Shown here one piece after another: positions 55,291-59,328 of a DNA stretch of 64,000 nucleotides (position 1 is its first letter; the number at the start of each line of letters is the position of its first letter). The notes under the pieces were generated by a model. It was not told the DNA's origin. It was given only the letters and a program-made list of their open reading frames with translations, and made no database searches. The position numbers and the translations under genes are program-made. This DNA is from Tolypothrix bouteillei VB521301 (GTDB lineage Bacteria; Cyanobacteriota; Cyanobacteriia; Cyanobacteriales; Nostocaceae): contig NZ_JHEG04000001.1 of NCBI RefSeq assembly GCF_000760695.4, positions 7,030,478-7,094,477 on the forward strand. The letters run 5' to 3'.

Positions 55291-56973
55291 ATGTCGGAAG
55301 AAGATATTCGTGCCACGCGACTGGAGAAAGTAGAACAACTGAGACAGCTAGGCATGAATCCCTATGCCTATCATGGGGAATTAACTCATCATGCTGCTGA
55401 ACTACAGGAGAAATTTGCCGATCTGCCTAGCGGTGAAGAAATTGACGTTGAAGTTGCTGTAGCGGGACGCATTATGGCGCGTCGTGTTTTTGGCAAACTG
55501 GCTTTCTTTACCTTGCAAGATGAAACCGGCACAATTCAGCTTTACTTGGAGAAAAAGCGCATAGAGGAAGGCATGGCAGAGGTTGCTGGTGCTTTCGATA
55601 ATTTGAAGCAACTCACAGATGTCGGTGATATTCTGGGAGCGAAGGGAACAATCAAACGAACTGAAAAGGGCGAGTTATCTGTATACGTAAAAAAATACAC
55701 TATTCTTACTAAATCCCTTCTCCCCTTACCTGATAAATGGCATGGGTTGACGGATGTTGCCAAACGCTACCGTCAGCGTTATGTCGATTTGATTGTTAAT
55801 CCTGAAGTTCGCCAAACATTTCGCCGCCGTGCTCTGATTACATCTGGTATTCGTCGCTACTTAGAACAGCGTGATTTTATTGAAATTGAAACTCCCGTTT
55901 TGCAATCGGAAGCAGGGGGTGCAGATGCGCGTCCGTTCATCACTTACCACAACACTTTAGAGATAGAACTGTACCTGCGAATTGCTACGGAACTCCATCT
56001 CAAGCGTTTGATTGTTGGCGGTTTTGAAAAAGTCTTTGAACTGGGCCGGATTTTTCGCAATGAAGGAGTTTCTACCCGTCACAATCCTGAATTTACCACG
56101 ATTGAAATTTACCAAGCGTATGCCGATTACAACGACATGATGGCATTAACGGAAGATATTGTGACTACCGTTACTAAAGAAGTGCTCGGCACGCTCGAAA
56201 TTAGCTACCAAGGTACACCAGTGAATCTGACTCCACCTTGGCGGCGTGCGACTATGCATGACTTGGTGAAGGAATATACGGGATTGGATTTTAACTCGTT
56301 CGGGACTTTGGAAGAGGCAAAAGAAGCAAGCAAGAATGCTGGTCTTGAAGGTATAGAAGATTGCTCCTCAATAGGTAAGCTTTTGAATGAAGCCTTTGAG
56401 CAAAAGGTAGAGGAAAACTTAATTCAGCCGACTTTTGTTATCGATTATCCTGTGGAAATTTCGCCACTGGCAAAACCCCATCGTTCCAAGCCCGGTATTG
56501 TAGAACGTTTTGAGTTATTCATCGTCGGAAGGGAAACTGCCAATAGTTTCTCCGAGTTGACCGATCCTATCGACCAAAGACAGCGTTTGGAAGCTCAAGC
56601 AGCACGCAAAGCGGCTGGCGATCTCGAAGCGCATGGGGTTGATGAAGATTTCTTGACGGCGCTGGAATACGGTATGCCCCCTACAGGTGGTTTGGGAATT
56701 GGAATTGACCGCTTGGTGATGGTGTTAACAGACTGTGCTAGCATTCGGGATGCGATCGCATTTCCATTGCTAAAACCTTCTAGTAGCGTTATTAAGGGAT
56801 TTGACTACAACTCAGCAACTCAAACACTGACAATTGAATTCAGTAGTGGTAGCGTTTATGAATATTACAAAGTGCCTCCTGAAGTCAAGGAAGCTTTAGA
56901 GAACGCTCCTTCCGATGGCAAATACTTTAACGAGTCTATTAAAGGAAAGTTTAAGCACGAACAGTTGAGTTAA
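55291..56973 (+). CDS. lysS: Lysyl-tRNA synthetase with C-terminal KTSC domain
   Basis: 560-aa class II synthetase charging tRNA-Lys. OB-fold anticodon-binding domain (about 55-150, [20 protein letters not shown]), then catalytic motifs: motif 2 [20 protein letters not shown] and motif 3 [20 protein letters not shown]. After residue 500 comes a KTSC domain ([20 protein letters not shown], with the characteristic YEYY motif), a short module named for its place at the end of some LysRS enzymes, function unknown. A perfect 15-bp hairpin follows the stop. Confidence 0.95.
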
Positions 56974-56980
56974 GCAGGTC

Positions 56981-57015
56981 TAAGGTACATGATGGTCAAG
57001 CCATCATGTACCTTA
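56981..57015 (+). terminator. Perfect 15-bp hairpin after lysS
   Basis: TAAGGTACATGATGG (56981-56995) pairs exactly with CCATCATGTACCTTA (57001-57015); the loop is TCAAG. It starts eight bases after the lysS stop. No T-run follows, so it may end transcription with help or protect the mRNA 3' end. It also interrupts the start of the toxin remnant. Confidence 0.75.
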
Positions 57016-57187
57016 GAGGACTCAATTAGTGAGGATGACTTGTATGAGTTACGCATGACGAAGAGCGAGCATAACCCTCGATTTATCTTGACAACCGCTA
57101 CTCCTCAGTGTTTCGTAGTTCTCCACGCTTTTATGAAGAAATATGACGGTGCTATTCGGGAGAAGGAGAAGTTCGCAAAACGGATTA

Positions 57188-57430
57188 ATTCGTAGTAAAC
57201 CGGAGTAATTCGGTTAACTGACTTCACCATAACTCAGTACAGAACTGTTTATTCTGTATTACTCGCAAGAGTTTTAGTCCGCTTTTAAATGATGACTTAA
57301 TGAGATTAGCCAGTCTCAAGCGTCGAGGGAGGAACATGGCTGCTTTGCGACAGTGCAACACCGAACCTTACCCCGTGAAGTTTAAAAGCAGTGTTGAGGC
57401 AAACTAGACCCCGCACAGGGAGTTAATCAA
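57188..57430 (+). ncRNA. HEARO / omega RNA of the IscB element
   Basis: The 243 bases directly before iscB are non-coding and foldable. Seen stems: AACCG/CGGTT (57198-57202, 57211-57215); AGTACAGAA/TTCTGTATT (57236-57244, 57252-57260, one G-U); ACTC-GCAA-GAGT with a GNRA loop (57261-57272); a long-range perfect 9-bp stem GCTTTTAAA/TTTAAAAGC (57281-57289, 57381-57389) closing a multibranch region; TGAGA/TCTCA (57301-57305, 57314-57318). Position right upstream of iscB is where the guide scaffold of IscB lies. The guide would be the roughly 16 bases just left of 57188. Confidence 0.78.
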
Positions 57431-58804
57431 ATGATTACCAACTCTGTATTCGTTTTAAGCAAGAACGGTAAAATATTAAAACCAACAACGCCAGCTAGAG
57501 CTAGAATTCTTCAAGCACAGGGTCAAGCTAAGAAATTGAAGTTATTTCCATTTACTCTAATTCTAGATAAGGAGGTTGATGAAAATGTAGAACCATTATT
57601 AGAATTACGAATTGACCCAGGTTCTAAGTATAGCGGGTTTTCGTTAGTAGACTTAAATAAGAATGAAGTAGTCTGGGCAATGGAATTAGAGCATCGGGGA
57701 TTAGCCATTAAAATGGATTTAATCAAAAGGGCCAGTGTTCGTCGTTCTAGAAGGTCAAGAAGACTTCGTTATCGTCAAAAGAGATTTGACCGCAAAAAGC
57801 CCTATGGTTGGTTACCACCATCTTTGAAACATCGTTTGTTAACTACCCAGACTTGGATTAAACGGTTGCTTAAGGTCGCTCCCATTAAATCAATTGCAAT
57901 TGAATCTGTTAAATTTGACTTGCAAAAAATAGAAGCACCAAATATTGAGGGGATTGAATATCAGCAGGGTACGCTGTTTGGATATACGCTACGCGAAGCA
58001 CTTCTAGAGCATTGGGGAAGAGAGTGTGTTTATTGTGGTCTGACGGATGTCCCCTTACAAATAGAACACATCAATCCGCGAAGTAAAGGTGGTAGCGAGC
58101 GCTTTTCAAATTTCACCTTATCGTGTGAAAAATGTAATCAGAAAAAAGGTAGTAAACCAGTAGAGCAATTTCTGAAAAATCAACCAGAAATATTGAAAAA
58201 AATTAAAGCACATCAGAAAAAATCATTGTCAGACGCCGCCGCAGTTAACTCAACTCGTAAAGCAATATTTGAAATGGCACACCAATTTGAGTTACCAGTT
58301 ATCTCAGGTGATGGTGCGTCTACCAAGATGATTCGGATTCAAAGTCAATTGCCAAAGGCTCACTGGCTCGATAGTGCATGCGTGGGAACTGACCAAATTG
58401 TGAAATTGCGTGTATGCCAACCACTGCTTGTTACTTGTACTGGTCATGGGACAAGACAGGTTCAAAGAGTAAATGCTAAGGGCTTTCCTGCAATTGCTAG
58501 TATCAAAAAGAATCCCATGACTGGTAAAAAAGAAGTTAAGTTAGTGAGTAAAAATCAGAAATATACTCATGCGACAGCAGGTGATTATGTGATTTGCACT
58601 TTGTCAGAAAACCGTAAACATATTAAAGCGGGAATTTATCGTGCTAGAGTTAAAACTCCAACTCCTAAAGGAGTAGAAGTGCTAATTAACGGTCATCGGA
58701 TCGGAGTCAATCAAAAATACTTCAAGCTGATTCATCGCTCCGATGGTTATGAATACAGTTTTACTACGATTGACCCTGATTTACTACGTTTAAAGCCTAT
58801 CTAA
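57431..58804 (+). CDS. iscB: RNA-guided endonuclease IscB
   Basis: 457-aa IscB, the transposon-encoded relative of Cas9. N-terminal PLMP-like domain (1-45, VFVLSKNGKILKPTTPARAR; ILKP replaces the usual PLMP). RuvC-I LRIDPGSKYSGF with Asp 62; Arg-rich bridge helix about 101-125; RuvC-II IAIESVKFD with Glu 158; HNH domain with zinc cysteines C199, C202, C232, C235 and His 213 in QIEHINPRSKGG; RuvC-III HWLDSACVG with His 311 and Asp 314; C-terminal target-interaction region to 457. Every catalytic residue is present and the frame is intact, so activity is likely. GGGAG precedes the ATG. It would cut both strands of DNA matching its omega-RNA guide. Confidence 0.92.
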   Translation: MITNSVFVLSKNGKILKPTTPARARILQAQGQAKKLKLFPFTLILDKEVDENVEPLLELRIDPGSKYSGFSLVDLNKNEVVWAMELEHRGLAIKMDLIKRASVRRSRRSRRLRYRQKRFDRKKPYGWLPPSLKHRLLTTQTWIKRLLKVAPIKSIAIESVKFDLQKIEAPNIEGIEYQQGTLFGYTLREALLEHWGRECVYCGLTDVPLQIEHINPRSKGGSERFSNFTLSCEKCNQKKGSKPVEQFLKNQPEILKKIKAHQKKSLSDAAAVNSTRKAIFEMAHQFELPVISGDGASTKMIRIQSQLPKAHWLDSACVGTDQIVKLRVCQPLLVTCTGHGTRQVQRVNAKGFPAIASIKKNPMTGKKEVKLVSKNQKYTHATAGDYVICTLSENRKHIKAGIYRARVKTPTPKGVEVLINGHRIGVNQKYFKLIHRSDGYEYSFTTIDPDLLRLKPI

Positions 58805-58867
58805 TGGTATGATAAAGAACCTGCACGGATTAGACTGCGGGAATTGCAGCAGAGAGAAACACTATGA

Positions 58868-59328
58868 CAAACTTGATAACAAATTTCCTCAATTCTTAAA
58901 GGCTTGGGCTACAAATATCCTACATCAAGAGGAGCTAATCCCAAAAGAAGTACTAGCATTACATATTTTTTATTATGTAGGGATTTTATTAGGTACAAGT
59001 AAAAGACGACAACAGAACTGACTCAGGTAAGCTAAAAATATTTTAATTTGCACACCTAAATTTTCAATAAAAATCTTGTGGGGCGGGCGAGACGCCCGCT
59101 TTCCCCGGTATGAACGGGCGGGGACGCCCGTTCCACTAGAAAGAGGTGCGTTACATTTCTATAAGAAAGTGCTGTATTAAATTACCTAAAAACTGCTGTC
59201 GCCATAAGACAATGTAAAAGGGTCTGTTACAATTGACAATTTGTACCCAACAAACCTGTATATTTTATATTAAGTACGAGTCATATTACGGGATATAGAA
59301 TATAACATGGTTTGAGGTAGAACATCTG
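58868..59328. other. Region right of the IscB element with a GC-rich repeat
   Basis: After the toxin tail, the overlapping ATG opens only 11 codons (MTNLITNFLNS). Another frame (to 59021) reads HQEELIPKEVLALHIFYYVG and resembles nothing I know; both may be relics of an antitoxin. At 59079-59142 GGGGCGGGCGAGACGCCCGC and GGGCGGGGACGCCCG form dispersed palindromes common in cyanobacteria. Confidence 0.45.

What the first reader, a model, noticed from the sequence alone, without database searches (positions are those of the whole stretch)
57188..58832. Intact IscB/omega-RNA element with definable ends, lacking its own transposase
The 457-aa protein has PLMP-like, RuvC-I/II/III (D62, E158, H311/D314), bridge helix and HNH (H213, four zinc cysteines) features, all intact. 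The 243 bases upstream are foldable. The flanking ACGGATTA repeat and a restored toxin frame mark both ends, which is rarely possible from a single genome. No tnpA is present, so it depends on a transposase elsewhere or moves by cut-induced copying.
Basis: partly seen in the sequence, partly recalled or inferred. Interest (0 to 1): 0.85.

Follow-up and report, generated by a model that had tools for sequence, protein, structure and literature searches.

The report
Cyanobacterial IscB element, ends corrected
This is an apparently intact mobile DNA element carrying an RNA-guided DNA-cutting protein (a relative of the ancestor of Cas9) and its guide RNA; it lies about 20 bases from where it was first placed, and its close relatives include miniature copies that keep only the guide RNA.

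Summary
The window holds an intact IscB element, but not with the ends first given. The protein (57431-58804) is IscB (400.6 bits, cut-off 175); dN/dS is 0.07-0.11 against six intact copies. The omega-RNA is supported by covariation (28 of 63 pairs) but not detected by the Rfam HEARO model. Twenty-five left ends and 26 right ends from two genomes, and 17 relatives with the interrupted Gp49-like gene unbroken at this site, place the element at 57166-58810, followed by GAT (GAC in most copies). The ACGGATTA repeat is a coincidence: left copy inside the element, right copy host gene. The predicted guide is host sequence 57149-57165. Lack of tnpA is usual for IscB elements. Less usual: (1) 13 omega-RNA-only elements of about 355 bp with both ends in the sister genome, each with another predicted guide; (2) ends alike in inverted orientation, unlike another IscB type in the same genus, so the mobilising recombinase is open; (3) three of eight IscB elements in this genome have a group II intron in the omega-RNA region. 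A new variant of a known kind; cutting, guide and TAM are inferred.

The parts
57149..57165 (+). Predicted 17-nt guide: host DNA immediately left of the element (part of the interrupted Gp49-like gene)
   Evidence: The 6 columns left of 25 aligned left ends carry at most 0.33 bit each, the element begins sharply after them; guide length and 5' position follow the OgeuIscB structure paper (PMC9640706, passages). Inferred, no RNA data.
57166..58810 (+). The mobile element (1645 bp); one of the two GA at 57166-57167 and 58811-58812 may be the target's
   Evidence: 25 left ends and 26 right ends from two genomes; spacing in 17 relatives with the site uninterrupted
57166..57430 (+). Omega-RNA scaffold; its first stem (57168-57172 with 57221-57225) begins at the element's left end
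   Evidence: Alignment A3 of 19 sequences, 28 of 63 pairs with compensatory change, one pair of the first stem A-U in 10 and G-C in 9; no HEARO match
57431..58804 (+). iscB, 457 aa, intact
   Evidence: NF040563 400.6 bits; dN/dS 0.07-0.11 against 6 intact copies; conserved catalytic and zinc residues
58738..58810 (+). Right end; last part of iscB plus 6 bp; similar to the left end in inverted orientation
   Evidence: Inverted score 33 against a shuffled 99% value of 26; direct score 16, at chance
58811..58813 (+). GAT: host bases at the insertion point, candidate TAM (GAY)
   Evidence: GA in 26 of 26 right ends (12 of them located with a motif that includes GA), next base C in 25 and T here; one further copy, L255, lacks the GA; GAC in 16 and GAT in 1 of 17 empty relatives
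56974..57165 (+). Left fragment of a Gp49-like (HigB-type by recall) toxin gene, missing its 5' half
   Evidence: PF05973 E 4e-6; 18 in-frame residues before the match against 68-72 in nine relatives
58811..58867 (+). Right fragment of the same gene
   Evidence: blastn to 14 relatives starting at 58811, one more from 58831, and to the sister genome locus L114 over 58811-58867

Best explanation
A non-autonomous IscB (ISC-type) element. Its omega-RNA is read from the left end; the 17 or so bases of host DNA just outside the left end become the guide, and the GAY just outside the right end is the TAM. IscB with this RNA would cut only an allele of the site that lacks the element, so that repair from an occupied copy puts the element back (retention), while movement to new sites is done by a recombinase supplied in trans. 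Shown: the protein family, intact residues, purifying selection, the RNA fold, the ends, empty sites. Inferred: guide identity, TAM, cutting, retention, trans mobilisation.
For: IscB family match, residues, dN/dS 0.07-0.11; covarying RNA whose first stem starts at the terminus; sharp ends with unrelated flanks in 25 left and 26 right ends; 17 relatives with the site uninterrupted and GAY at the insertion point; all 17 differ from the predicted guide at 4-8 of the 14 TAM-proximal positions, so only the founder allele should be cut (mismatch effect from PMC9640706 passages); a second natural empty site, for the omega-only copy L188, where 13 of 16 relatives have GAT at the insertion point.
Against: No expression, cleavage or transposition data. 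The omega-RNA is not recognised by HEARO, although four other IscB loci of the same genome score 73.5-89.5 bits, one of them above the gathering score; a published survey found HEARO hits for only 65% of such nucleases, so this is not rare (PMC9755519). The window has T where 25 of 26 right ends have C; copy L255 has no GA at its right end; 3 of 16 relatives of the L188 site have no GA there. Three of the six longer IscB-bearing copies in the sister genome are broken. No transposase with matching ends was found.
Confidence: 0.8

Rival explanations
1. The element ends at 57188 and 58832 and is flanked by an 8-bp ACGGATTA target duplication.
For: The 8-mer is really present at both places.
Against: Other copies carry the left copy's sequence as part of the element; bases from 58811 on are host sequence in relatives without the element (15 of 17 by blastn, the other two by position) and in G018; 180 of 2000 shuffles share an 8-mer.
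Confidence: 0.02
2. It is a dead relic: the protein is intact by chance and nothing moves or cuts any more.
For: No transposase in cis; several copies in both genomes are truncated or frameshifted; the omega-RNA is divergent.
Against: Four of four longer copies of this type in this genome have an open frame and dN/dS is low; the RNA keeps its pairs by compensatory change; a different IscB type in the same genus has copies 100% identical over 1,769 bp with different flanks, so IscB elements without tnpA move there now.
Confidence: 0.1
3. Mobilised by an IS200/IS605-type Y1 transposase in trans, like ISC elements in general; the GA at the left is part of the element and GAC at the right is the target motif.
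For: Y1 transposases exist in the genome (16 matches); insertion without a long target duplication; the conserved C after GA (25 of 26) fits a target motif; published view of ISC elements (abstract of Kapitonov 2015, recalled, not read here).
Against: Left and right ends resemble each other only in inverted orientation in the 8 IscB copies tested (direct similarity at chance in 8 of 8), whereas another IscB type of the same genus (L308) shows direct hairpin similarity (49 against a shuffled 99% value of 23); 11 Y1 neighbourhoods share no ends beyond what a reversed control gives.
Confidence: 0.45
4. Mobilised by another recombinase, for example a serine recombinase with GA as crossover dinucleotide.
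For: GA at the 25 left and 26 right ends and once in most empty sites; subterminal inverted similarity. GA-core large serine recombinases exist (recalled).
Against: No such recombinase was searched for or found; the conserved C is not explained; GA also fits the Y1 reading; L255 lacks GA and 3 of 16 relatives of the L188 site lack it; the control L308 also scores in inverted orientation (24, p 0.008) because its hairpins are palindromic, and 3 of 7 omega-only copies show no clear inverted similarity. Lowered from 0.3 to 0.25 for these facts.
Confidence: 0.25

Closest known systems
ISC / IscB OMEGA elements (OgeuIscB and relatives)
   Same: RRXRR/PLMP, split RuvC, HNH, structured RNA upstream, no tnpA; guide from the left flank by inference
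   Different: Omega-RNA not detected by the HEARO model; ends with inverted rather than direct similarity; GAY candidate TAM
HEARO RNA (RF02033)
   Same: Position upstream of iscB, structured; by eye a similar GAGGCAAAC-containing 3' part
   Different: No match at E up to 1; 17 of 20 other IscB loci examined match above the gathering score
Standalone omega-RNAs reported for IscB (Altae-Tran 2021, cited in a passage of PMC9581776)
   Same: Omega-RNAs without iscB that could serve IscB in trans
   Different: Here they are elements of about 355 bp with both ends defined, 13 in one genome, each with another flank; the 2021 paper is not held, so I could not compare ends
IStrons (group I intron with an insertion sequence; PMC4227781, search listing and start of abstract only)
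   Same: Self-splicing intron combined with an insertion sequence
   Different: Here group II introns with HNH-containing maturase ORFs sit in the guide-RNA region of three IscB elements

Membership tests
IscB | Match to a curated IscB model above its cut-off | tested here: met
   NF040563 400.6 bits, cut-off 175
IscB | RuvC and HNH catalytic residues and zinc cysteines | tested here: met
   29-31 of 32 aligned proteins, gaps from two fragments counted as misses
IscB | Structured omega-RNA directly upstream | tested here: met
   28 of 63 pairs with compensatory change in 19 sequences
IscB | RNA-guided double-strand cleavage | not testable with these tools
   needs protein and RNA
HEARO RNA (RF02033) | Covariance-model match | tested here: not met
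   no match at gathering score or at E up to 1; positive controls in the same genome reach 73.5-89.5 bits
IS200/IS605-type (ISC) transposon | Same-strand similar hairpins at both ends | tested here: not met
   direct similarity at chance in 8 of 8 IscB copies; present in the control L308. A Y1 acting on unlike ends remains possible
IS200/IS605-type (ISC) transposon | No long target duplication, short fixed target motif | tested here: met
   GA/GAY at the insertion point in most copies and empty sites, with the exceptions L255 and 3 of 16 relatives of L188
IS200/IS605-type (ISC) transposon | tnpA in cis | tested here: not met
   non-autonomous elements also lack it
Serine-recombinase element with GA core | Recombinase acting on these ends | not tested
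   no genome search was left for it

The most novel reading that the evidence does not exclude
This genus carries an IscB family that has left the IS605 way of moving (GA-core, inverted ends, a different recombinase in trans) and feeds a swarm of miniature omega-RNA-only transposons; each insertion captures a new guide, so that a few IscB genes are served by many mobile guides, and in part of the elements a group II intron splits the guide from the scaffold so that splicing decides whether the nuclease is armed.
Probability: 0.22. Interest if true: 0.8.

Novelty: new variant of a known kind. Interest (0 to 1): 0.5.

Why it matters
IscB is the likely ancestor of Cas9. A family with well-defined ends, natural empty sites and omega-RNA-only miniature copies makes it possible to test in one genus how IscB guides are acquired, whether they act in trans, and which recombinase moves an IscB element that lacks one. 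The introns inside omega-RNA regions give a natural test of splicing control over a guide RNA.

Tried and rejected
Rejected: the 8-bp duplication; HEARO membership. Not found: a transposase partner recognisable by the same left end. One search gave 7 places in G000 and 24 in G018 at 0-1 mismatch; those I looked at are IscB-bearing, omega-only, truncated or intron-split copies. Two lone left ends, L254 and (at 2 mismatches) L259, show no obvious transposase in their ORF lists (no family search of those ORFs). At 2-3 mismatches most hits are chance by the reversed-pattern control (25 in G000 and 32 in G018, against 40 and 60 hits in all). Y1 elements: 11 neighbourhoods of the 14 Y1 places were compared (three with the same score as another were dropped), with no shared ends. 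Papers by Altae-Tran 2021, Weinberg 2009 and Kapitonov 2015 are not held, so what I say of Kapitonov is recalled. No paper on group II introns inside omega-RNA genes appeared among the listed rows (in 77 only 12 of 75 were listed); that is not proof of absence. Rows dropped: for the left-end count I left out copies whose left end is missing or interrupted (L160, L161, L162, L164, L190), L166, and the later finds L254-L259; for the right-end count L176 and L178, which lack it, and L166, L256 and L257, located only; L255, whose right end has no GA, was missed by my motif and seen only. The 12 omega-only right ends were located with a motif that includes GA. In one search the script stopped with an error at L176, after the values used here were printed; its values for the broken copies L172 and L175 are meaningless and not used.

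Full report
What was given. The window is part of a 9.9-Mb genome (G000).

The protein. The ORF 57431-58804 (457 aa) is IscB: NF040563 E 4e-120, 400.6 bits, cut-off 175; Pfam RRXRR and HNH; solved IscB chains at E down to 6e-38. Against six intact copies dN is 0.08-0.11 and dS about 1.0-1.2, giving dN/dS 0.07-0.11: strong purifying selection.

The family in two genomes. Eight IscB loci exceed the cut-off in G000. Four are of the window's type: the window's own and three that are 81-82% identical to it over nearly the whole length. The only other held genome of the genus, G018, has six longer IscB-bearing copies of this type, of which three have an open 457-aa frame and three are broken, besides deleted ones.

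The ends. Twenty-five left ends, from IscB-bearing, deleted and omega-only copies in both genomes, begin with GAG[A/G]AG; the flank to their left is different in every copy (at most 0.33 bit per column in the six bases before it). Twenty-six right ends are followed by GA, then C in 25 of 26 and T in the window (the 12 omega-only ends were located with a motif that includes GA, the 14 others by alignment). One further copy, L255, which my motif had missed, has no GA there. Seventeen genomes of the same family carry the interrupted gene without the element at this site. Their DNA matches the window's left flank, in most up to about 57155 by blastn; 14 match the right flank from 58811, one from 58831, and two are aligned by position only; the nine or so bases between are divergent but of the right number. 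At the insertion point 16 have GAC and one GAT. In the sister genome the right flank 58811-58867 also stands next to non-element DNA. An omega-only copy, L188, gives a second natural site: of 16 relatives that carry its right flank, 13 have GAT at the corresponding point and three (L198-L200) have no GA there. So one GA usually lies in the empty site and one at each end of the inserted element; whether it belongs to the target or the element cannot be told.

ACGGATTA is present twice, but the left copy lies inside the conserved left end of the family and the right copy is host gene. A shared 8-mer occurs in 180 of 2000 shuffles of the two 80-base regions. The toxin gene (Gp49-like, PF05973) was not otherwise intact: it has 18 in-frame residues before the matched part, against 72 in eight of nine relatives measured and 68 in the ninth.

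The RNA. An alignment of 19 left ends (9 from IscB-bearing copies, L178 which keeps only the start of iscB, and 9 omega-only) folds with 63 pairs, 28 of which have compensatory changes; the first stem starts at the left terminus and is A-U in 10 and G-C in 9 sequences at one pair. Rfam HEARO does not match the window at gathering score or 56950-59050 at E up to 1, although it matches four other IscB loci in the same genome (89.5, 82, 79.4 and 73.5 bits; gathering 83) and 17 of 20 distant IscB loci (20 of the 32). A survey reports HEARO hits for 65% of such nucleases (PMC9755519, passages), so a missing hit is not rare. In the published OgeuIscB structure the guide is the 5' part of the RNA, about 17 nt, and a TAM is needed (PMC9640706, passages); the guide here would be 57149-57165, with GAT (58811-58813) as TAM. 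The 17 empty relatives differ from this guide at 4-8 of the 14 TAM-proximal positions, positions at which mismatches abolished cutting by OgeuIscB; so the expected target is only the founder allele. This supports a retention role and speaks against homing into relatives. All of this is inference from sequence.

Omega-only elements. G018 has copies of about 355 bp with the left end, the omega-RNA and the right end but no iscB: twelve with both ends plus L257, 13 in all; seven measured lengths are 327-362 bp. Further hits are partial or lack the GA. G000 has one such copy (L166, 360 bp), one split by an intron (L253), and one 122-bp copy with ends only (L165). Each has another left flank and so another predicted guide. 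Standalone omega-RNAs that can function with IscB have been reported (Altae-Tran 2021, as cited in a passage of PMC9581776), so the kind is known; their form as a miniature transposon family with both ends defined is what this adds, as far as I could read.

How it moves. No tnpA is in the element, which is usual (PMC9755519, passages). The genome has 16 Y1 matches; 11 of the 14 Y1 neighbourhoods were compared and share no ends with the element beyond what a reversed control gives. The two ends of the window type resemble each other in inverted orientation (p at most 0.01 in 8 of 8 IscB copies; 4 of 7 omega-only copies at p below 0.01, the other three at 0.05-0.39) and not in direct orientation in the IscB copies (8 of 8 at chance). 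A different IscB type in G018, L308-L311 (86-93% identical to L169, whose RNA scores 79.4 bits with HEARO), is present in four copies with different flanks, 100% identical over 1,769 bp (1,731 in the fourth), and shows direct hairpin similarity of its ends (49 against a shuffled 99% value of 23), the pattern I expect for Y1; being palindromic, its ends also score somewhat in inverted orientation (24, p 0.008). So IscB elements lacking tnpA do move in this genus, and the window type may use a different recombinase. The copies tested are related, so the eight results are not independent.

Introns in the guide RNA. In three of the eight IscB elements of G000 (L158, L163, L167) a group II intron of about 2.5 kb with an HNH-containing ORF lies in the sense direction in the omega-RNA region; in L158 it starts 31 bases from the left end. 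For L163 and L167 the placement inside the RNA rests on HEARO matches on both sides of the intron, the upstream ones weak (41.5 and 40.5 bits). A copy of the L158 intron, identical over 2,477 bp, lies at the same position of another left end (L258). The IscB ORFs of the three are open. Related introns are common in the family (103 of 145 genomes, the two of this genus included) and mostly not near IscB: of the 29 intron loci from other genomes that were fetched, 2 (L286, L289) have an IscB within the fetched flanks, and none of 20 distant IscB loci had a group II intron match. Whether they splice is unknown.

Verdict. Interest 0.5; new variant of a known kind. On re-checking I lowered the serine-recombinase rival from 0.3 to 0.25 and the novel case from 0.25 to 0.22 because of the GA exceptions and the control's inverted score.

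Noticed in passing
L158:1558-4049; L163:4892-7368 (minus); L167:1397-3875; L258:1972-4463: Group II introns with HNH-containing ORFs in the omega-RNA region of three IscB elements and in the left end of a fourth element (L258, followed directly by a second intron). 3' ends approximate.
   Followed up: partly
L253:2635-4969 (approximate): An omega-only copy whose left end is separated from the rest by about 2.3 kb that includes a group II intron match in antisense orientation.
   Followed up: partly
L286:1288-3907; L289:855-3311: In two other genomes a group II intron lies beside or inside an IscB ORF; in L286 it falls between the parts matching residues 66 and 69.
   Followed up: no
L308-L311: Another IscB element type in G018, four copies 100% identical over 1,731-1,769 bp with different flanks: very recent movement without tnpA in cis.
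   Followed up: partly
L165:3050-3171: A 122-bp copy made of the two ends only, the smallest derivative seen.
   Followed up: no
window 59067-59142: GC-rich repeat dispersed in the sister genome (44 matches to this flank in G018, most of them in this stretch).
   Followed up: no
window 56781-56970: lysS has a C-terminal extension of about 60 residues (KTSR-like by recall, no search made) that the G018 lysS lacks.
   Followed up: no
L158, L159, L160, L161 right ends: The element's last two bases AT plus the host GA give ATGA, which looks like a start codon for a downstream ORF in several copies; not tested.
   Followed up: no
L258:8226-10554: A dense array of tRNA matches follows the tandem introns.
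   Followed up: no
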